Source: Paragorgia papillata (lineage: Eukaryota > Cnidaria > Anthozoa > Scleralcyonacea > Coralliidae). Taken from it: a DNA stretch of 64,000 nt. Of this stretch, positions 15,623 through 37,798 are shown piece after piece (the stretch's first letter is position 1; every line of letters begins with the position of its first letter). The notes beneath the pieces were generated by a model. The model saw only the letters and a program-made list of their open reading frames with translations, was not told where the DNA came from and did not search any database. The DNA lies in the NCBI GenBank assembly GCA_035771165.1, contig JAWNZC010000179.1:1956501-2020500 (forward strand), written 5' to 3'. The translations under genes were made by a program, and so were the position numbers.

Positions 15623-15665
15623 ACTAGTGTGTGTAATTGTGTCATTCTGTTTTTGAAATTACATC

Positions 15666-18600
15666 ATGAAGTTTCTTGTAGTCTTTGCGCTCGTTTGTTT
15701 CCAATTGGGCTTTTGTGTTGGGCTTTTAAAGGAAGTAGGTAAGTCGATAAAATGTGTTAGCTTTAGGTTTACTTATTTAACTGGCGTTAGACGTCTACGA
15801 GTCAGTGTTGCAAGACTCGAGAGTAGAAATTAGACTCGTCAATTAAGACCGAACTCGGCTAAATAAGACTCGGACTTGGAAAGTCAAAACTCGAGTCCAA
15901 GCCAAAACTTTGTCTTTCTATTCGCTTGTTCCATTCCGAAAGATTGGTTACATTCAAGAGTTCGAGTACAGTGAAGTTTTCCCGCGTTTTGGATAGCAAG
16001 TTTCCTTTAATCTGAGTTTAGTTATCTACTCATAATAGTAGGGAGTATCTTTTTTACTTTCACCAGCATTTGCCAATGAACAATTGTTGTTCAAGCAAAA
16101 ATATTGTCCAAAAAGGTAATTACTTTTCAACAATACACTTAAGACTCGGACTTGGACTCGAAATGGCAAGAACTAAAAAAAAAAGGACTCAGAATTGTAC
16201 TGGTACAACACTGGTGCGAGGTACGTAGGTTGATCCACGTTTGGGAACGGGTGGGTCAACACAGCGCAAAGCAAGACATCCCCAAGTATCTACTAAATAG
16301 ATAGCGCGCGCAAACCCAGTCAAGCTCATGCAGACCACGCTGACAAGACTTTGATGAGCGCTGAGATAATCCCAACAAATTATAATGAGTGACCACTGAC
16401 CAAATATGTAATAAATAGATAGCGCGCGCAAACCAGTCAAGCTCAGACCACGCTGACAAGACTTTGATGAGCGCTGAGATAATCCCCACAAATTATAATG
16501 AGTGACCACTGACCAAATATCTAATAAATAGATAGCGCGCGCAAACCAGTCAAGCTCAGACCACGCTGACAAGACTTTGATGAGCGCTGCGATAATCCCA
16601 ACAAATTATAATGAGTGACCGCTGACTAGCATTGTCTCCTTTTTTACCTTGCCTAAATTACATTTAGCCACATTAAAATCTTAATTTCAATGTTTCGACT
16701 CTCTTAAATTATCATCATTTCCTGACATTGACGTGAGTGCAAACGTTGTAATTAGAATCGCAATTTCATTTGGAGTATCTACTGCATTGGTTTTATGTAA
16801 CTATATACCACCAGTTAAATCACTATCAGTTTGGCATGTGCAATGCTACTGAAAGTTGCAAAAAATGTTTTTATTTTCAGTCTGCGGTCCCAGAAAAGAC
16901 CACCAGCGCCGTGCATCCACCTCCTATAGAAGCCCCTTCAGCTCACAGAATGTACTTCTTCCAGGAATTACAAGTCAGAATTAATTACATTAACATTTGG
17001 TAAACGCTCCTTCAATACATTCTTTATTTTTCAGAATACAGCCTAGAGGCCAGCAGCCAACCAACGCCAACAACACTGTAAATTTGGCAGTGTTCAGCCA
17101 ACACTTGATAGGTGTTAAATTACACCAAATTGGTGTAAAATGACAACTTACACTTTTTTAGTGTTAGTTTACACGCATTATGTGTATTTGTACACTTGAC
17201 ACGTGTAGCCACAACACTTGTTTGGTGTAAATCAGGACATAACTCATTTAACACTATGATCGTGTAAATTTACACTATAAAGTGGTAGTCTAACACTAGG
17301 TCAGTGTAAGTTTACACTTGGATAAGTGTAGAAAGACACATGTTTGGTGTAACACAACAGAGTCAATATTTCACACTGTTTTGGTGTAAATCAACACCAG
17401 GAAGCGTTAAGCCGAACTTTCCAGCACGGTTTTGCGTTTAATGGAAAATATTTTTAAGGTCCCATACTATACCTGACATATATGAAAACATCAATTGCAA
17501 TATTTTTGTAATATTTCTTTGCAAATTTAATAGAGGAATAATTAATGGTGGACTAATTGAGGCAGTGAGAGCACTTATGCTTACCTATTATGTTTGTAAT
17601 CTTCAATATCCGAAGGATTGTTTAAACACATTTGTCTTTTTACAAAGAAACATTTTAAATGTCTATGATACACAGAAGGTGCCAACAAGAGTGTTGATGC
17701 TTGTATCAGAATTGGCAAGCGTTTAAGTTAGGAAACCCCGTCAATATTATGTTCATTCTTACTTATTATTTTGTATTCTACAATGTAATTATTTTTAAGT
17801 ATTAAATTATGTATTAAATTCCCTTACGAAAAAATCCTATAGGAATTTGAATAGGAATTCCTATAGGAAAATATGCTTCCTATAGGAATTCCTATAGGAT
17901 CCTATAGGAATAAATTTTCCTATAGGAATTTGATAGGAATTCCTATAGGAAAATACGCTTCCTATAGGAATTAAAATTTGTGTTGGCCAAATTACAAAAT
18001 AAATATTATTAGCAAACATTTTGGTCGTTGGTCTAAAATAATTTTATTTCCATACAAAAAGCAGTTGAGACACACCTGAAATTCCATATCAAGATAAAAA
18101 TTGCCATTAGTTCGGTTCTTCAACCGCATTCCGCAGTATCAGACCATTGCCATAATTCCGAATTAATATGTGAGTGTAATTTTGAAACAGAATAGCATAT
18201 CAGAATTCCGAAAGAAAGGCTACAGGTAATAAAACTTCTGGCTAAACAGCGCAGTCACCAGTGCAGCAACCTGGTGCAGAGGCTCCGTCTGGCCAGTGGG
18301 CCAGTGTCGTACCCAGGCGCATGCAGCCACGAAACCGCGCAGATAGCGAGCGCGCATTGATACTTGGGATAGCGTCATTTCATTTTCGATTCTCATCTCA
18401 GCGCGCCACGTTTGAAATTAATTTGTGATGGTGTTTTGGCTTTTGAGTTCAAGCTATGGAAACTTTTGGTAATAAAAGACTTTTGCGAAGAGATCAGGCA
18501 GACAGTCCTCACCGAAGTAACATGTTCTTACGGAAAGATTTAACTAAAAGCCATGAAAATCCAGTTGAACCAAGAAAGTCCTAGAAGCTTCTCTCGCACG

Positions 18601-19294
18601 AGGCTACGAGCAAGGTAAGAGATTGAGTATTTATCGTTTGTTTTCTATTGTCCTCCTTATTGTAATGTGAAATTTTCTTTGGCTCTCGTCAAATTTCCTG
18701 TTTGATTGATTGTCCAATACAAACCATTTTACTGAAGTTAGTGTAGTTGAAGTCAATGTTTGGTATTATAAGTCATCATCTAGTTTTGAACATGGCGGTT
18801 GGAATCTCTAGTCAATTGTGGTTCCTAACAAACTCTCAAATCATTCTACCTTTTTTGCCATTCTTTAGCCACCGTTGCTTTCATGATAAGGATTATCTTA
18901 TGTAAAACTAAAGCATTCAGATTTTGAGGTAAAAGTTATTTGTGATTAGCGTATTTTGACTGAATCACTGGCAGAATTCATCATCATTATGAAATATCAA
19001 ATTGTTGTTAACAGACTAACAGTATGTTTTGTGTGTGTGTGTGTGTGTTTGTTTGTTTGTTTATTCATTTCATATATTATTTTCTCTTGTTTTCTAGTGC
19101 ATAGGGTAGAGTTACCTTGTTCAGTTGTGTTCAACCATTTAATTCAACTTGCTGTTTATATTGGTAAGTAAAATCCTTAAATAACCTTAATTCATATACT
19201 AGTAGTTTATTTATTGAGTAATGACATAATGATCTATTCCTATGTTGATATCTCAAAGTACTAATTACAGGTCATATATTGGTCTAACTGTATG

Positions 19295-19356
<62 letters not shown>

Positions 19357-22300
19357 TAAAGTTCAAAGACTCAACAGGTTTGATTAGAACCATTTTATCT
19401 GAAGAGTACCACACAATATGTGTGGCACGAAACTAAATAGTAATAAAATGTCTAATCAAACCTGTTCAGTCTTTGAACTTTAACTATAATATGCTCTGGA
19501 TTCCCATCGAGCACTCTGCCAAAGGTTTTTACAACATCTTCTACAGTATATATATATATATATATATATTTAACAATTAAATTATGGGCTCAAAATTTCT
19601 GAGTGAATAGTTGACGAGAGTGGACAGCATTTGCAATAGTACACTAGTAAGTTTCTGTTACATATATATATATATGCATGCATGCTAAAAACACAGATCA
19701 CACATCTGGATATTTTAGAAAGTTGAACAGTTTGATTAATAAGACAAACTGATATAATAATAATAATATTCATTTGGTATAATTTTAGTGATATACAGAT
19801 ACGGCATATTCCTTATACCTTACTGAACATCCCTATATTCTAATTGTCTTCAAAATTATAAGAATTCTGCTAGGAAAGTAGAATTTTCTGTCCAAATTGT
19901 TTGTTCGGTAACTGCAATCTTGTACTTTGGAGGAATGTGACCTTGGGAGGGAATCTTACTCTTGACCCTGGGAAGCTAGTCAGCTAGTTAGTAGGTCATT
20001 ACTGAGAGCCCATTTGTGATACAGTATATGATGGAAGATTAAGTCCTAAATATACTTTGTATATGTTTAATACATGTATTGACATTAATTTACACTCCAC
20101 ATGATTTTACTCTCTAAAGGGGAGGTAGCAATGGTATTGAGTCAAATAATTATTACCCATTCCTGCCTGAGCCAGCCAATAATGTCCCCTTTATTGTTTT
20201 ACTATGTTTATCAGCAGATAATTCCTCAGACACCCTATTGTAGGCATCAATGGGTTAAATGGATTGACTATTTAAACAAAGAAAAATCACAACAAAATCA
20301 AAATTTTAGCTTATAAATTGAAATTTTGAGTTTTGTTGCAAAGTGGTTAATGTATACCTTTAAATATTTGATTTAATTAAAAATTAGTTAACAAATTGTT
20401 GAACTAATTTTCTCATTCTACAGGACTGGACTGGTACACATTGAGTGATGATGCGAAAGCCAACTTCTCAACAAAAGAAAAGGATTGTTGATCTCCAAGA
20501 TGATTACACTGATACTCCCTTGTGTCGTTGCTGATTGGATTGTTAAGTACACTTTGAAAATACCAACATTCTAAATATGTAATGTAGTATCCTATTCCTA
20601 AATGCTGAATGATGTATTTTGGATATAGATGCAGAACCACATACATGTAACATGGTTAGTCTAGGATTTTTAGCTTAGTTAATATTTGGAAATTTGAACT
20701 GCCAAAAATGGTTTGCTTATGACAATCTCCCCATATACCATGTATATAACTAGTATTTATTATAGTACAGTAAGTGTATACTTTAATGTCATCCTGATGT
20801 AAACCCTCACAGTTTTTTATTATGTGTTAAAATATATTGAATATGTTGACATTAATGTTAAATGCTTTTAAAAATGTTTATTTCCTCTTGGTCATTGATG
20901 TGCTGAATGACATGTTTCAGGATGTGTTATTATGCACACCTACATGTGTAAGATAACACACATCAGGGCATGTTGCATAACACACCTTTTTATTAACACA
21001 CCTATATATAACACATCTTAATATTGAAAACTGACCAAGGTGTGTGAAATAACACACCTTTTCACAAAACACAACTTAGTGTGTGTCAAAATTTGGACAG
21101 GCCAAAAAAACAACTTACTAGATGTGTTTTTTAACATACCATAAGGTGTGCCTTTCAACACTTAAGGAGTTAAGGTGTGTTAGAAAACCTAATTAAATAA
21201 GATGTGTTAATATTTGGACAAAAAAGGTGTGTTAATGTAGAATATTGTACTGCGTAACTATTGATAAAATGTTTTGTGGAGTATCTTGTAGAATTCCAAA
21301 GACTGTTCTATTGTATATCTTGTAAGATAGCTTATAGAATATTCTAAAGCATTTTCTATTACATCTTATACCATATCCTATAGAATATTCCATAGAGAAT
21401 CCAATAGAATATTCTATATAATTTTTTTATGGAATATTCTATTGGATATTTTCGTAAGGAGAACTTGCTTTGTTTTTCTCACTGATGAATTTCCATAGGA
21501 TTTGCTCAATAGGAAATCCTATAGGATTTAATGGGAAATCCTATAGGAATTCCTATAGGATTCAATGGAAATTCCTATAGGATTCTATAGGAATTCCTAT
21601 AGGATTCAATAGGAATTCCTATAGGATTCAATAGGAATTCCTATAGGAAATTGGGCTAAAATCTTATAGAAATTCCTATAGGAATTCCTATAGGATTTTT
21701 TCATAAGGGTTATTTCACACTGTCTTACAAAATGTTTACTTTCAGTTCAATTCCAATTCTTTTGGCAACGCAGTCTTGGTGTAGAAAGGAGCACAGTGTT
21801 GATTTACACTAGTTGTTGTGCAAGCTATTTTACACCAATAATGGTGTAAAAAGAACATTTTCAGTGTGATTTTACACTTACAGTGTAAATTTACGCTGAG
21901 TTGATGTCCCCACAGCTGCAAGGAATTTTACACCAATATGGTGTAAAAAGAACACTTTCGGTGTGATTTTACACTTACAGTGTAAATTTACACTGAGTTG
22001 GTGTCCCCACAGCTGCAAGCAATTTTACACTAATGTGGTGTAAATAAACACTTTTTGTGTAATTGTACACTTACAGTGTAAATTTACACTGAGTTGGTGT
22101 CCCCACAGCTGCAAGCAATTTCACACTAATGTGGTGTAAATAAACACTTACAGTGTAAATTTACACTGAGTTGGTGTCCCCACAGCTGCAAGCAATTTTA
22201 CACTAATATGGTGTAAAAAAAACACTTTTGGTGCAATTTTACACTGTTCATGGTGTTACTTTACACCCTTGTTGTGATAGCCTTTACACCATTGTTAGTG

Positions 22301-25077
22301 TAAATATACACTCGTTTGGTGTCTCCACAGCTGCAACGATTTACACCATTTTTGGTGTTGGGTTGACACTCCCAATTTTACAGTGAAGGTAACACCACAG
22401 AATATAAGTAGAAGAAAGTACTTGAAAAAAAAGGAGTTATGGTTGAACGTTCCCGTTTATTTTCTATGCCACTACATAAGTTACACAGAATACGTAAAAA
22501 TCTAGGGCCTGTTTATATGGAGCCGAGTTACCCGGCTAGCCGAGTTACCCGCCATGCATAGAAATTCAATGCTATCCCGGCAGAGTGTTTATATGAGACA
22601 GGCGGGTAACTCGGCTAGCCGAGGGCAAAACAGCCGAGATCTCGGCATGCCGGGATGAAAATATTCCCATATAAACACTCTCTTGCCGGGTAACTCGGCT
22701 AGCCGAGTTGAATTCGTCACAACAGCGCACGCGCCACTTATGAAGACAATCGGAAACTACTCCAGGTTGAAACTACTCATGGAATGTGAAACCATTATAA
22801 TGCGTGGGCGGCTTTGTCGAGTAACTCGTCTCATATAAACACTCATCTTTTTTCAACTCGGCTTGCCGGGTAACTCGCCTAGCCGGGTAACTCGGCTCCA
22901 TATAAACAGGCCCTTAGTTAGCTCAACCTAAAATTTTGGGCTTTGTAAACATGCGTTTGCTTCTAGTGCAACGACACATAAAATCGAGACATTCTTAGTA
23001 GTGGAATATTACAAATACTGCATTCTGATCAGCTAAGCTGCTCACTGTCTATTGGTACAAGACGATTAAGTCATTAAGTATCAAGGTAAAGCCTAGTTTC
23101 CATATAATCGCCGGCGATCGCTGTCGATCGCCAGCGATTCTCAGCGATCGACTTATGGAAACACTTTCCAGCGATCCGGCGATCGCTCACGATCGCTGAG
23201 ATCGCTCATGTTCTATCCCAGCGATCGTAAGCGATCATTTGGAAACACAATCGCGCGATCGAATAGTAGTCCACAATGCACTGCTTTTGTCGTTGTAAGG
23301 TAAGGTAAGGTAAGGTAAGGTAAAGGTCTTTAATTAGAATACATCAAACGTGTATCTTTACAATCAAATTACTCCTAAGGATTTTTCAATGTGGCCGTGT
23401 CGAGGCATATCAAAGGCGCTTTAAGCAGCCGCCATACGACACAGTTCAGACCACGGACCCCAGCTAAGCCCTGGGTGTTGATTTTACGGAGGGAGGAAAA
23501 CCGGAGAACCCGGCGAAAAACCCTCGGAGCACAGGAGAGATCAAATAAACTCTACTCACATGAGTCCCAAGCTCGAGAACGGGGTTGTTCCCAGACGGTC
23601 ACCCATCCAAGTACTAACCCCGTCTAACCGGGCTTAACTATTGGTGAGAGGCAGCGCCCTAACAGCACACGTCATCCGTTGCCATTGCAACGCGTCTATT
23701 TTCTCATTCAGTTGAGCACGAGGTTTGAACATGGCGGATACCGAAATATTTATGGAAGAAATTCACAAATATGAATGCTTAAATAATAAATATTGCAAGG
23801 ATTACAAAGACAACTATATGAAGATGAATGCCTGGAAAACAATCGGCGAAACATTTGGACTGGATCCTCATTCGGCCGAAACTAAATTTAATAGAATATA
23901 AAATAATAGAATAGAATAGAACAACGTCGGCACATCAAAGATAATCGACACGTGAATAAACTAATATAACAATAGAGTTCATGTTCGTGGGTATAAATAC
24001 GTTTTTGGCCCGACTCAGGCTCATTATACTAATTTTATTACTATTAATAGTATTACTATTATAACAAGACGCCTCACTCCGTCACACGGCAAATAAATTA
24101 CCGGAAGTATGAATAGTAAGTAGCGGAAGTAAAATGCGAATGCAAAATCGTAACACCCCCAAAAAAAAAGGGGGGGGGGGTAAATCCAATCCGAAACCTA
24201 GACTCCGCCTACCACAGATAGCCCGAGTAATAATTTTAGTGGGCATTAAGAAGAAAATCAAAGACAGTACACTGAACAGTATCTTGAACAGCGCCGCCTT
24301 CGCGTCGGCGTGTATTTCATTGCCATAAATATTTATATAACTCATAACTTACATACATTAAAACTTGGCAGAAAAACGCAACCATCAAAACAATCTTTGC
24401 TTCAAAGTATTGACAAGAAAAGTATACAATTCCATAAACAACAAACCAATAGTGATTTAGAACTGTTAAAACTGATAGGCTCAAATCGGCGGACTAAAAT
24501 ATATTTTAGCCCGCTAAATTCTCCATTTTAGCCCGCAAAATACACCACAATGCCTGATAAAATTATTATAATGAATACTATATATGAATGATATTATTCC
24601 TATAGACCTTATTCAAAAATGGCCGCCGAATTAAAATTCTTTTATATACATATAAATTAGCCCTTATGAACTCGTTTTCATGTGGGAAATTCAAAATAAT
24701 TTTTACTTTAAAACGAGGTTATAAGGGCTAATTTTTTTGCACATAAAAGAATTGTAATTCGGCGGCCATTTTTGAATAAGGTCTATAGTCTTGTACGCTG
24801 TGCAGAGTATGGAATACTTTACCAGACTCCATCAGGCACAAGTCTCTATCATTAGAATCATTTAAAAATAAACTACTTAACTACTATAATTATGCCCTTA
24901 ATCATTTCTACGTGACTGATAACCCTAGGACATGGAAGTCAGTATGTGTGAAATGTAATGTAGCACGTGGTCTTGACCGCCCTCTGACCTGTTGTTTTTA
25001 GCTAACTAATTGTATTCCGAGCCCACAGTAATTGGTAATAACTGTTGTGGTTACCCCGCCTACTTTCATTATTGTTG

Positions 25078-25130
<53 letters not shown>

Positions 25131-25933
25131 TATTTATTTTATTTTTTTCTCTCTGTAAGTTGTAGGCAAAGTTTAATAAAATAAAAATAAAATTAATTCC
25201 AATCTTTCAATCTTGCAGTCCACCCAAAAACAAAACCAAGATCTTATTCACCAACAACTGGGGCGAGACTCTGCAAGGTAGTCTTATTCCGGGGGAAGAA
25301 GTTCGTATCGTTTACGACTCGGACAGACTACCAGGCCGTGACAAGCGGTACGGGCAAAGAGCCTGGGAAATATTCGCCGAGGTCAAGTACTCGGAGAATG
25401 ATACCGTGCACTCGCTACGACTTGAAGGTCCTGACAGCAACGGCATGATGACCACCGTACTAACCATCCCACCAGAAGCCACCGCCTTCATCATCTGGTT
25501 CAAACACTGGGGCTACTACAGCGGGTACTCCTACGACAGCAATGACGAGAAAAACTACAGATTTCCTTTCAACCAAATAGTGTTTACCGACACATGGGAT
25601 GAATATGTGAAGGGAGGTCTTTATCCCGGGGGGAAATTTCAAGTCGTGTACAACGCGCTGAGATTACCGTGGCGCGATACCGGTTACTTAGGCATGGGTC
25701 GAGCCTGGAATATCTTCGCGCATGCTCAGTTCTCGGATAACGGACCGGTGGTCCAACAGATGTTGAAAGGCCCAGCGCTCGATAACCCCACAATGACAAC
25801 AGTGTACGATATTCCTGAAAACGCCAAGAAGGTCGTTATGTGGTTCTACTTCACGGGCTACCGAAGCGGTACACACTACGATAGCAACCACAATATGAAC
25901 TATCATTTTGCCTTGAGTAAAAATCAAAGTTAA
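15666..25933 (+). CDS. Gene B: two-domain DUF6209-like secreted protein
   Basis: Three coding exons. Exon 1 (15666-15738) encodes a signal peptide (MKFLVVFALVCFQLGFCVG start) and ends at G|GTAAGT in phase 1. Exon 2 (17035-17077) encodes a Ser/Thr/Pro-rich linker of about 14 residues and ends in phase 2. Exon 3 (25219-25933) enters in phase 2 after TCTTGCAG and encodes two repeats of the domain. In each repeat I see W-(G/D)-E, a PG turn, R-(I/F)-(R/Q)-(I/V)-V-Y, R-L-P, an Ala-Trp-(E/N)-IFA strand, FIIWFK or VVMWFY, and YDSN-x-x-x-NYxF. The predicted product is about 276 residues, secreted, with function unknown. AATAAA lies at about 26009. The donor of exon 2 lies inside the first bases of a CACTA-like transposon (17074-22385). 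The upstream acceptor at 16880 could serve an alternative exon, but its phase does not fit. Intron 2 is 8.1 kb and almost wholly transposon. Confidence 0.75.
16260..16640. repeat. Tandem array of about 120-bp units, three copies
   Basis: Units contain AATAGATAGCGCGCGCAAAC, CCACGCTGACAAGACTTTGA, TGAGCGCTG(A/C)GATAATC and AATTATAATGAGTGACC. It lies in intron 1 of gene B. Two overlapping minus-strand ORFs here are products of the array. Confidence 0.85.
17074..22385. mobile_element. CACTA/EnSpm-like transposon, 5.3 kb, in the exon 2 / intron 2 boundary of gene B
   Basis: The termini start CACTGTAAATTTGG and end CCAATTTTACAGTG, with an inverted match of about 31 bp. The flanks are AA on both sides (17072-17073, 22386-22387). 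Subterminal zones (17090-17400 and 21770-22380) are dense arrays of GGTGTAAA/TTTACACT motifs, including TTTACACTGAGTTGGTGTCC repeats of 80-120 bp. CACTG ends with motif-rich subterminal arrays are typical of the EnSpm/CACTA group; the 2-bp duplication is short for it, so the class is tentative. No transposase was recognised; the centre is a second nested element. Confidence 0.7.
17821..21709. mobile_element. Nested element with CCCTTACGAAAA termini
   Basis: The left end CCCTTACGAAAAAATCCTAT mirrors the right end ATAGGATTTTTTCATAAGGG, and TT flanks each side. Behind each end lies an array of ATAGGAATTCCTATAGGA palindromes (17830-17965 and 21480-21700). The interior has exon-like stretches with good splice signals (18456-18614 after an ATG; 19098-19163; from 20424) but no joint open frame. 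It also has a hairpin at 19356-19476 and (TA)n tracts. The same 12-bp terminus bounds 32755-33025. Confidence 0.6.
22505..22913. mobile_element. Harbinger-like MITE, family GGGCCTGTTTATATGG
   Basis: The inverted ends are GGGCCTGTTTATATGGAGCC and its mirror, flanked by CTA (left) and TTA (right). The interior is built from repeated CCGGGTAACTCGGCTAGCCG palindromes. The same family lies at 56869-57641. Confidence 0.75.
23090..23290. mobile_element. Left end of a Harbinger-like element
   Basis: AGCCTAGTTTCCATATAATC follows TAA (23087-23089). The interior repeats the CGATCGC(T/C)GGCGATCGC palindrome and reaches a mirrored TTTGGAAAC near 23240. The rest is interrupted by a SINE, and then comes the MADF ORF at 23731, so this may be one broken autonomous element. 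Confidence 0.5.
23295..23695 (-). mobile_element. 5S-rRNA-derived SINE
   Basis: Read on the minus strand, 23575-23640 carries GTTAGTACTTGGATGGGTGA preceded by TTAAGCCCGG, the box-C region of 5S rRNA. The body follows, and a GGTAA pentamer tail (plus-strand 23297-23325) marks the 3' end. Fragments of the same head lie at 26640-26705, 31240-31275 and 49100-49180. The plus-strand ORF at 23391 is a by-product. Confidence 0.65.
23731..23901 (+). pseudogene. MADF (Myb/SANT-like) domain ORF, probable Harbinger relic
   Basis: A 56-codon ORF starts ATGGCGGATACC and encodes FMEEIHKYECLNNKY, then KDYKDNYMKMNAWKTIGE, then a helix ending SAETKFNRI. This fits the MADF fold: a first helix, the Tyr-Lys-Asp linker, the conserved Trp, and the start of the third helix. 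The frame stops just where MADF proteins continue with an Arg-rich segment, next to a small AATAGAATA duplication, so it looks truncated. MADF proteins are the second product of PIF/Harbinger transposons, and a Harbinger-like end lies 640 bp upstream. A host MADF gene fragment is the alternative. Confidence 0.5.
24602..24786. mobile_element. Small inverted-repeat element in gene B intron 2
   Basis: GACCTTATTCAAAAATGGCC and its mirror lie near the ends, and both arms continue through GCCGAATTA and TAGCCCTTAT. The ends TATAGACC/GGTCTATA suggest a TA target. Confidence 0.65.
25081..25128. repeat. (TA)n microsatellite
   Basis: A pure TA run, about 90 bp before exon 3 of gene B. Confidence 0.9.
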
Positions 25934-34928: not shown

Positions 34929-36009
34929 AATAAAGGGTTAACACAGATAATACAAGGGTTAATACAATTATACAAAACCAACCAACAGCAAACTATGTTT
35001 GTGTCGCCACTTTTACAAAACTATATACGCGGTATGTCAAAATAGGAAACTATAGCTACCACGCACACTTTTGTAGAACAGCTAGTTGAGTTGCAATTAA
35101 AACTATTTTTACATGATTTGATTGAAACTGTAGTTCAACAAAAGTCGCGGCGCAAAGCGAATGCGTTTTCAGAATTTTGTCAAAACAAAACAAGTTTAAA
35201 TACTTTTCAAAATTGTAAATCAACTGTCCAATTCTACAATCATTTTGCTATAAACTGTAAAAATTTGAATTTGATTGCTTTTAAACTCAACGCGCAGTTG
35301 CATTTTTCGCAAAGCACTACTCCAAGGTGTTACGTAACCTTAAGTCGCATCTTGTAATTTCTGAACTCAATGCACGTTTGGAAGGCACAGACTTTACGAG
35401 TTTCGGCTGCGTAGCATCTTTGGCCTGTAAATTAACTCATAATGGTTTCATTGCGTAGCCATGGTTCCTTTTGCGTATTCCAACAAAATGTATTTCAATT
35501 TTTATTTGTCTATTTCAGATGAGCCTGACAGTGGATCGGCTGCGGCTGATAGGTAAACGTCGAACGTAAAAACAATTTTTGTAAAAAGGAAGTTTTAAAT
35601 TCCTTTCCTTATACCATGGATATTAAAAAACTGGATAGGAAACTTGATGGCGTGAGCATGACAATTATAGTTGAAATTTTTCAAAGTTTAGCAATGATAC
35701 AGCTTAAAAGATTACTCGAACTGCCTGTATATACGACAGAGCCACAGTAAGATAAAATGCCCGTTTATTACTAATTTCTCAGTTTAAAAAGAAATATCAA
35801 AGTTTACAAGGGTTAAATGTAATGGATATACCAGGCGGGAAACGTAATTTGAATATAAAAATAAGTGCCCAGCAAATGACTTTAAGACAAGACATGACAA
35901 CTTCAAAGAATATAAAAATTTAATTGCTAACGTTTCGTTGCTTCAGTACAGGGCAACATCATCAGAGCGGTTTGAAATCATTAAGATAAAGTAAGTGTAT
36001 ATTATATAT

Positions 36010-36455: not shown

Positions 36456-37798
36456 ACTTATATTATATATATATATATATACATATACATGGATTCAAAT
36501 ATTAAATTACAAACGATTAAAATATTTTAAATATTAATTTTCAAACCGTCTGATGATGTTGCGCTGTAAGCAACGAAACGTTAGCAATTAAATTTTTATA
36601 TTTGCTGGACACTTATTTTTTATTTTTAAATTAGGTTAAATGTACACATCCATGAAATGTCAACTATATTTATTTGCATGCGAATAACAATTCGAAGAAA
36701 ATTTCATTTAAAACCTCAGTAAAACATGCAAGCATATATATACTCACGCCATTTGTGACATCACAATTTTCAACTAGGTTTCAATTCAATCATTTTACAA
36801 ACTGAGTATAAACTGCAGTCTATAACCAATACTCAAAGCACCCGCGTGACTATTATATTCTAATTCAATCTTTTTACTATATCCATGCTTATAACATGCA
36901 AGTTTTAGACGCAAGAAATATAAACCGAGCTGAAAGTATACCATACTAATTAACGTAGAAATTAAAGTTCTTATCTCTTCTTCAGTTCGCCAGATGCGAC
37001 GGTTATAATGTTCACCAGCAAATGGGACGAGATTGTCCAAGGAAACCTAGCTCCCGGGAAGAAAGTCCGTATCGTCTACGACCCGGATAGGTTTCCGTCC
37101 CATAAGAAATTGAAGTGGCGAAAAGCCTGGGCCATATTCGCCGAGGTGAAATACGCCGAGAATGGCCCCGTGCATTCGACAGAGCTTGAAGGGCACGATA
37201 AAAACACCAATATGACGACCACCACACTAACCATCTCCGCCAAAGCCACGACCTTCATCATCTGGTTCAAATACTGGGACAAGATTACTGGAAACGCTTA
37301 CGACAGCAACTTCGGAAAGAATTATGAATTTTCGTTTAACCAAATAGTGTTTACCAACACATGAGATGAATATGTAAACGGGAAGCTTTATCCCGGTGGG
37401 AGGTTTGATGTTTTGTATGATAAAAGAAGGCTACCTTGGAACGATCGTGGTTACTTAGGAATGGGAAGGGCTTGGAATATATTCGCGTTCGCAAAGTTCT
37501 CAGACCAAGGGCCGGTGGTCAAAAAGAAGCTCGAGGGTCCGGTGGGTGAGGACCTAACCATGAATACACGGTTTAAAGTTCCCGCCGACGCTACGAAAGT
37601 GATCATGTGGTTCTACTACACTGGGTACATCCACACCAGTCGTTACGATAGCAACCAAGGAGCAAACTATTATTTTGCTCTAAAGTAAGCGTTAGGAAGT
37701 CGATGTAAAGAAACTACTACCGACAAGAAATAAAAAGTACATTTCAAAGAAATAGATGTTTTGTTATTTTAAATAATGAGTGAATAAATAAGTACACA

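What the first reader, a model, noticed from the sequence alone, without database searches (positions are those of the whole stretch)
17035..25218. A transposon terminus appears to supply the 5' splice site of a host gene, in the right phase
Seen: gene B exon 2 runs into a CACTA-like element that begins CACTG at 17074. Its right end is at 22385, and AA flanks both sides. Removing the element and one AA leaves the exon ending AG|GTAACA in phase 2, exactly as in paralog C (AG|GTAAAC). With the element present, its own first bases give CT|GTAAAT, again in phase 2. So a 5.3-kb insertion seems to have destroyed the old donor, created a new one two codon positions later, and kept the frame. Inferred: insertion was tolerated because the new junction only changes one or two linker residues.
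Basis: partly seen in the sequence, partly recalled or inferred. Interest (0 to 1): 0.9.

Follow-up and report, generated by a model that had tools for sequence, protein, structure and literature searches.

The report
Young transposon offers replacement splice donor
A recently moved piece of mobile DNA landed one base before the end of a small exon in an animal gene and, by the sequence, offers a substitute splice signal in the same reading frame; similar cases are known in maize, and whether the animal uses this one is untested.

Summary
A 5,312-bp element (17074-22385; 2-bp AA target duplication) sits one base before the end of exon 2 of a DUF6209 gene. Without it, exon 2 is 40 nt and ends AAG|GTAACA, the phase of paralog C. 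With it, exon 2 is 43 nt and ends ACT|GTAAAT: one codon more (TS to TTL). Exon 2 holds no GT and reading on meets TAA at once, so the element's first GT is the only GT donor up to 17600 that keeps the gene open with this exon. But 13 of 39 insertion points would keep the frame, and the donor is weak: 2.9 against 6.8 for the old one, which survives 5.3 kb downstream. The left end has 29 copies in the genome; 14 of 20 other copies fetched long show both ends, all 14 with 2-bp duplications. This copy has 0.3% private changes, so the insertion is young and may not be fixed; the assembly shows no empty allele. Use of the donor is plausible, not shown; a weak or null allele is the main rival. It works like maize En/Spm ends: a new case of a known kind.

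The parts
15666..15738 (+). Gene B exon 1 (signal-peptide-like start, by eye; ends in phase 1; donor TAG|GTAAGT)
17035..17077 (+). Gene B exon 2 as it now reads (43 nt; last 4 nt CACT come from the transposon)
17072..17073 (+). Left copy of the 2-bp target duplication AA
17074..22385 (+). 5,312-bp CACTA-like element without a stop-to-stop open frame of 100 codons (non-autonomous)
17074..17093 (+). Left terminal inverted repeat; carries CACT|GTAAAT
17078..17083 (+). Candidate substitute 5' splice site GTAAAT (score 2.94)
17079..17081 (+). In-frame TAA met at once if exon 2 is read on into the element
22366..22385 (-). Right terminal inverted repeat; on the + strand it ends TTTTACAG|TG, an acceptor-like site (score 7.39)
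22386..22387 (+). Right copy of the 2-bp target duplication AA
22388..22394 (+). Old donor, still intact: last exon base G and GTAACA (AAG|GTAACA, score 6.77)
25219..25933 (+). Gene B exon 3, whole DUF6209 domain (PF19714, E 2.1e-34)
16067..16115 (+). Rival in-frame exon in intron 1 (49 nt, score 16.9), inside an old dispersed repeat, GC 0.31
35519..35552 (+). Paralog C exon 2, donor TAG|GTAAAC, phase 2, no element
36986..37688 (+). Paralog C exon 3 (DUF6209), with an in-frame TGA at 37362-37364

Best explanation
A non-autonomous CACTA-like DNA transposon of a recently active low-copy family inserted at the AA that precedes the last base of exon 2 of a secreted-looking DUF6209 gene (shown from sequence). 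It moved the old donor 5.3 kb away without changing it and put its own end, CACT|GTAAAT, at the exon's edge (shown). Net exon growth is 3 nt, so the phase is unchanged (shown). At least some transcripts probably join 17077 to 25219, adding one linker residue, with lower efficiency than before because the donor is weak (inferred).
For: TIRs and duplication. With acceptor 17035, every GT and GC donor from 17036 to 17599 was tried: the only ones that keep the gene open are the GT at 17077 and a GC at 17065; exon 2 has no other GT, and the donors listed past 17077 all give a stop. Skipping exon 2 shifts the frame. Exon 2's acceptor scores 12.1, against 8.0 for exon 3's; 0.03% of the 3,538 window AGs on this strand score as high. 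Exon 2's host part has GC 0.54, like C's exon 2 (0.59) and exon 3 (0.49), against 0.37 for the window. The inferred ancestral junction AG|T agrees with paralog C. No AG from 22050 to 22387 gives an open route through an element-derived exon ending at the old donor, from exon 1 or from exon 2.
Against: Donor ACT|GTAAAT lacks G at -1 and +5; 12% of the 3,611 window GTs on this strand score as well. By splice scores alone exon 2 with the new donor (15.05) is not special: 38.5% of 200 simulated introns hold an in-frame exon at least as good. An in-frame rival exon at 16067-16115 scores higher in total (16.9). No RNA evidence. Intact coding says little because the insertion is so young.
Confidence: 0.5

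Rival explanations
1. The insertion is a recent loss-of-function or strongly hypomorphic allele, perhaps still segregating. GTAAAT at the element's end is an incidental motif that U1 snRNP seldom uses; exon 2 is mostly skipped or the intron mis-spliced, and the transcript is frameshifted.
For: Only 15 of 5,058 aligned columns are private to this copy; seven of the 10 copies compared are 0.60-0.94% away. Donor is weak. Skipping exon 2 or reading on into the element breaks the frame. Paralog C already carries a TGA in its DUF6209 exon, so broken members may be tolerated.
Against: Exons 1 and 3 of gene B are fully open, though a young insertion would leave them so. Weak donors behind a strong acceptor can be used (recalled).
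Confidence: 0.36
2. Gene B bypasses exon 2 with another in-frame exon, most likely 16067-16115, so the insertion lies in what is now intron.
For: Of 10 other in-frame exons (phase 1 to 2; acceptor at least 4, donor at least 2.9, 15-300 nt) it alone outscores exon 2: acceptor 8.5, donor 8.4, total 16.9.
Against: 15% of 200 simulated introns hold an equally good in-frame exon. It lies in a dispersed repeat found at 6 other places, 69-81% identical, and has GC 0.31; no + strand match to its peptide at gene C is among the ten best listed.
Confidence: 0.11
3. The element is removed on its own as a complete intron (CACT|GTAAAT ... TTTTACAG|TG), leaving 8 extra nt, and the old donor then serves a 5-nt rest of the exon.
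For: Right end is acceptor-like, score 7.39; the old donor is intact and scores 6.77.
Against: The resulting mRNA is out of frame, with the first stop after residue 116, and a 5-nt exon is hard to splice (recalled).
Confidence: 0.02

Closest known systems
Maize En/Spm and dSpm insertions whose termini act as splice sites (Menssen et al. 1990, EMBO J 9:3051; seen only as a reference entry and one citing sentence in PMC4219821)
   Same: CACT-type element whose own end is read as a splice site of the host gene
   Different: By its title the maize paper reports a novel intron made from a dSpm element; here only the donor would be taken, the acceptor stays the host's own, and no transcript is known. 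The host here is an animal.
Introners (Gozashti et al. 2022, PMC9860276, passages read)
   Same: Cut-and-paste-like element carries a 5' splice site; insertion may add codons
   Different: Introners make new introns in many genes and are short (median length 30-654 nt across families); this element is 5.3 kb, lies at an existing junction, and no recurrence in host genes was recognised
Soybean TgmR CACTA element in intron 2 of the R gene (PMC4219821, passages read)
   Same: Large CACTA element carried in a host intron and spliced out with it
   Different: TgmR lies 110 bp inside the intron and does not replace the donor; it has a 3-bp target duplication

Membership tests
CACTA/EnSpm (CMC group) DNA transposon | TIRs beginning CACTA or CACTG | tested here: met
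   Both ends begin CACTGTAAAWTTGGSAGTGT, a pattern written from them; the left 31-mer has 29 copies in the genome, this one included, 27 exact. The rule itself is recalled.
CACTA/EnSpm (CMC group) DNA transposon | Target duplication of 2-3 bp | tested here: met
   2 bp in 14 of 14 other copies with both ends found: TA 5, CA 3, TG 3, AA 2, GG 1. 6 of the 20 long loci showed no right end within 8.9 kb. Rule recalled.
CACTA/EnSpm (CMC group) DNA transposon | Subterminal repeat arrays | tested here: met
   Four copies of a 112-nt repeat at 21864-22245 and TTACAC..GTGTAA motifs at both ends. Rule recalled.
CACTA/EnSpm (CMC group) DNA transposon | Transposase of the TNP2 / Transposase_21 type in an autonomous partner | tested here: inconclusive
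   L011 shares the left end (461 nt, 98.7%) and holds pieces that look transposase-like by eye. 7 L011 pieces and 1 of L021 gave no transposase match in Pfam; one piece has 30 relatives, none named as a transposase.
Introner | Family members recur as introns in many host genes | tested here: inconclusive
   Crude look, by open frames and eye, at the flanks of the 31 other places (both flanks for 14, left flank only for 17): none recognised as a host exon edge; some lie in open frames that look like other mobile elements. No gene annotation was available.
Transposon end used as host splice donor (En/Spm kind) | Transcript joins host exon to host exon through the element's donor | not testable with these tools
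   No RNA data available
DUF6209 (PF19714) protein | Profile match over the curated cut-off | tested here: met
   119.8 bits against cut-off 27.5

The most novel reading that the evidence does not exclude
The terminal repeat is a mirror pair of splice signals (CT|GTAAAW at one end, WTTTACAG|TG at the other) in either orientation, so this active animal CACTA-like family is partly shielded from selection in exons and repeatedly donates splice sites, as introners do in protists. Against it: the right end read the other way gives a still weaker donor (ACT|GTAAAA, 1.29), and no other copy was recognised at a host exon edge.
Probability: 0.06. Interest if true: 0.65.

Novelty: new member of a known kind. 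Interest (0 to 1): 0.36.

Why it matters
If used, it is a clean, datable snapshot of a splice site being replaced by a mobile element in an animal: exact target duplication, old donor still present, one codon gained, and a very young insertion that may still be polymorphic, so both alleles could be compared in one individual. Outside that, it follows precedents from maize and introners.

Tried and rejected
Nested-insertion idea: the inner inverted repeats at 17821 and 21709 first suggested a later insertion inside the element. In one search, 7 of the 14 copies with both ends align along nearly the whole element, 6 lack or differ in part of it (notably element bases 462-1033) but share most of the rest, and L027 lacks most of the middle. 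So the inner part moves with the family; an ancient nested origin is not excluded. Element-derived exon ending at the old donor: every AG from 22050 to 22387 tested from exon 1 and from exon 2; 6 acceptors score above 3; no route is open; AGs further upstream were not tested. Alternative acceptors from 25100 to 25329 joined straight to exon 1: open only at 25278, 25299 and 25302, all with negative scores. Empty allele in the assembly: the joined-flank query found only the two halves, and the genome shows 5 DUF6209 matches, all in one cluster. Orthologs: 14 relatives in the protein collection; I read the 14 and, by eye, none shows a match to exon 1 or exon 2. TIR pattern in viral contigs: 0 matches. 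DUF6209 in the paper library: 0 papers. Paper searches on splice donors from transposons were used only as listings, apart from the two papers named; I make no claim that an animal case is unpublished.
Full report
What is there. Gene B is a three-exon gene for a secreted-looking protein (by eye) with a DUF6209 domain (PF19714, 119.8 bits). Exon 1 is 15666-15738, exon 2 is 17035-17077 and exon 3 is 25219-25933; together they give 276 residues without a stop. The whole genome (617.9 Mb, 473 contigs) shows 5 DUF6209 matches, all within about 68 kb of one contig: A, B and C in this window and two more upstream on the other strand. The window also holds a homeodomain and a sulfotransferase open frame, so the organism is taken to be an animal (inference).

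The element. 17074-22385 begins CACTGTAAATTTGGCAGTGT and ends with the reverse complement of CACTGTAAAATTGGGAGTGT. A pattern written from both ends, with up to 3 mismatches allowed, matches only these two places in the window, against a mean of 0.03 in 100 shuffles. It holds no stop-to-stop open frame of 100 codons. AA lies on each side. A 216-base query of the two flanks joined with one AA matches the assembly only as bases 1-109 and 108-216, at the two sides of the element. The 2-bp overlap is the target duplication, and no empty site was found in the assembly.

The family. A 101-base probe found 32 places, this one included. The left 31-mer with up to 2 mismatches has 29 copies, again with this one, 27 of them exact, and 0 for the reversed control; 3 of the 32 places (L042-L044) are a related variant outside that pattern. 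I fetched 20 of the 31 other places with 8.9 kb of what follows. 14 of the 20 had a right end (13 exact, one with one mismatch), and all 14 had an exact 2-bp duplication: TA 5, CA 3, TG 3, AA 2, GG 1. The other 6 showed none; one of them (L014) holds masked bases, and L011 and L021 carry transposase-like open frames (by eye) and may be longer relatives; Pfam did not confirm a transposase. I aligned 10 of the 14 with the window copy, leaving out L010, L018, L025 and L027 for large length differences. Seven are 0.60-0.94% from the window copy and three are 6.3-8.4% away. Counting a change as private if one copy alone has it and all the others agree, in columns with at most one gap, the window copy has 15 in 5,058 columns, 0.30%. 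The insertion is therefore young. With heterozygosity of about 1%, common in marine invertebrates (recalled; the species is not known to me), it could still be polymorphic.

Before and after. Without the element, exon 2 is 40 nt and ends AAG|GTAACA, giving ...PTPTS|PPKN; with it, exon 2 is 43 nt and ends ACT|GTAAAT, giving ...PTPTTL|PPKN. The old donor was not destroyed; it sits unchanged at 22388|22389.

How strong is the case that the new donor is used? For: exon 2 contains no other GT; among donors from 17036 to 17599, the only ones that leave the gene open are the GT at 17077 and one GC site at 17065, AAC|GCCAAC. Reading past CT meets TAA at once (residue 39 is the last). Skipping exon 2 shifts the frame. 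No AG from 22050 to 22387 gives an open route through an element-derived exon ending at the old donor. Exon 2 has a stronger acceptor (12.1) than exon 3 (8.0) and coding-like GC (0.54). Against: with a human-like weight matrix (frequencies recalled), the new donor scores 2.9, the old 6.8, and C's 5.75; 12% of the 3,611 GTs on this strand of the window score as high as the new one. It lacks G at both -1 and +5. In simulated introns of the same composition, 38.5% of 200 hold an in-frame exon that totals at least the 15.05 of exon 2 with its new donor, so the scores alone do not single it out. Of 10 other in-frame exons found in the real introns, one, 16067-16115, totals more (16.9); 15% of the 200 simulated introns hold one as good as that, it lies in a dispersed repeat (6 other places, 69-81%), and its GC is 0.31.

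Is the phase match remarkable? No. Of 39 insertion points in exon 2 tested, 13 keep the frame, and all 13 leave the gene open. One in three is the chance level, and one family among many could land at a donor somewhere in 618 Mb (inference).

Is the gene alive? Exon 3 of B against C gives dN/dS of about 0.20 over 229 codons (Nei-Gojobori), so the lineage was constrained; dS is 1.42, so nearly all of that history predates the insertion. C has a TGA in its DUF6209 exon. Open exons in B therefore cannot show that the gene still works after a young insertion. This is why the loss-of-function rival stays at 0.36.

Comparison. [quoted passage not shown] 1990, which I could not open. [quoted passage not shown] The present case works like these on paper. 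It is not filed as an introner because recurrence in host genes was not found: the flanks of the 31 other places were looked at only by open frames and by eye, both flanks for 14 and the left flank alone for 17, and none was recognised as a host exon edge. In principle the terminal repeat gives a donor-like CT|GTAAAW at one end and an acceptor-like TTTTACAG|TG at the other; removal of the element alone would leave 8 nt and break the frame here, and the right end used as a donor scores only 1.29.

Verdict. The sequence observation is right but for the codon count and the fate of the old donor. The replacement donor is the best single reading of what the gene now does, at about even odds, and needs RNA or a second allele to settle.

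Noticed in passing
window 37362-37364: Gene C has an in-frame TGA inside its DUF6209 exon where gene B has a tryptophan codon; pseudogene, allele or assembly error not told apart.
   Followed up: partly
L011, 3153-7253, and L021, 5384-5779: Long copies share the element's left end but carry multi-piece open frames on the opposite strand (C2H2-like zinc finger, PF17017 just over its cut-off; in L011 a piece with GLPSDIMHDMLEGV); likely autonomous partners, with no transposase match in Pfam.
   Followed up: partly
window 15803-16213: 411-bp stretch bounded by CAGTGTTG inverted repeats in intron 1 of gene B, partly repeated elsewhere in the genome; hAT-like by recall.
   Followed up: partly
window 16249-16688: Dispersed repeat in intron 1: a query over 15660-17073 gave 76 matches from 40 scored candidates of 790; all 75 besides the window itself lie in this stretch.
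   Followed up: no
window 21882-22346: Five copies of a 50-nt subterminal repeat at the element's right end; 4 of 5 hold GTCCCCACAG and one GTCTCCACAG, acceptor-like strings.
   Followed up: partly
L025 and L034: Two copies on contigs C467 and C40 have the same 40-base left flank, so one is probably a segmental or assembly duplicate.
   Followed up: no
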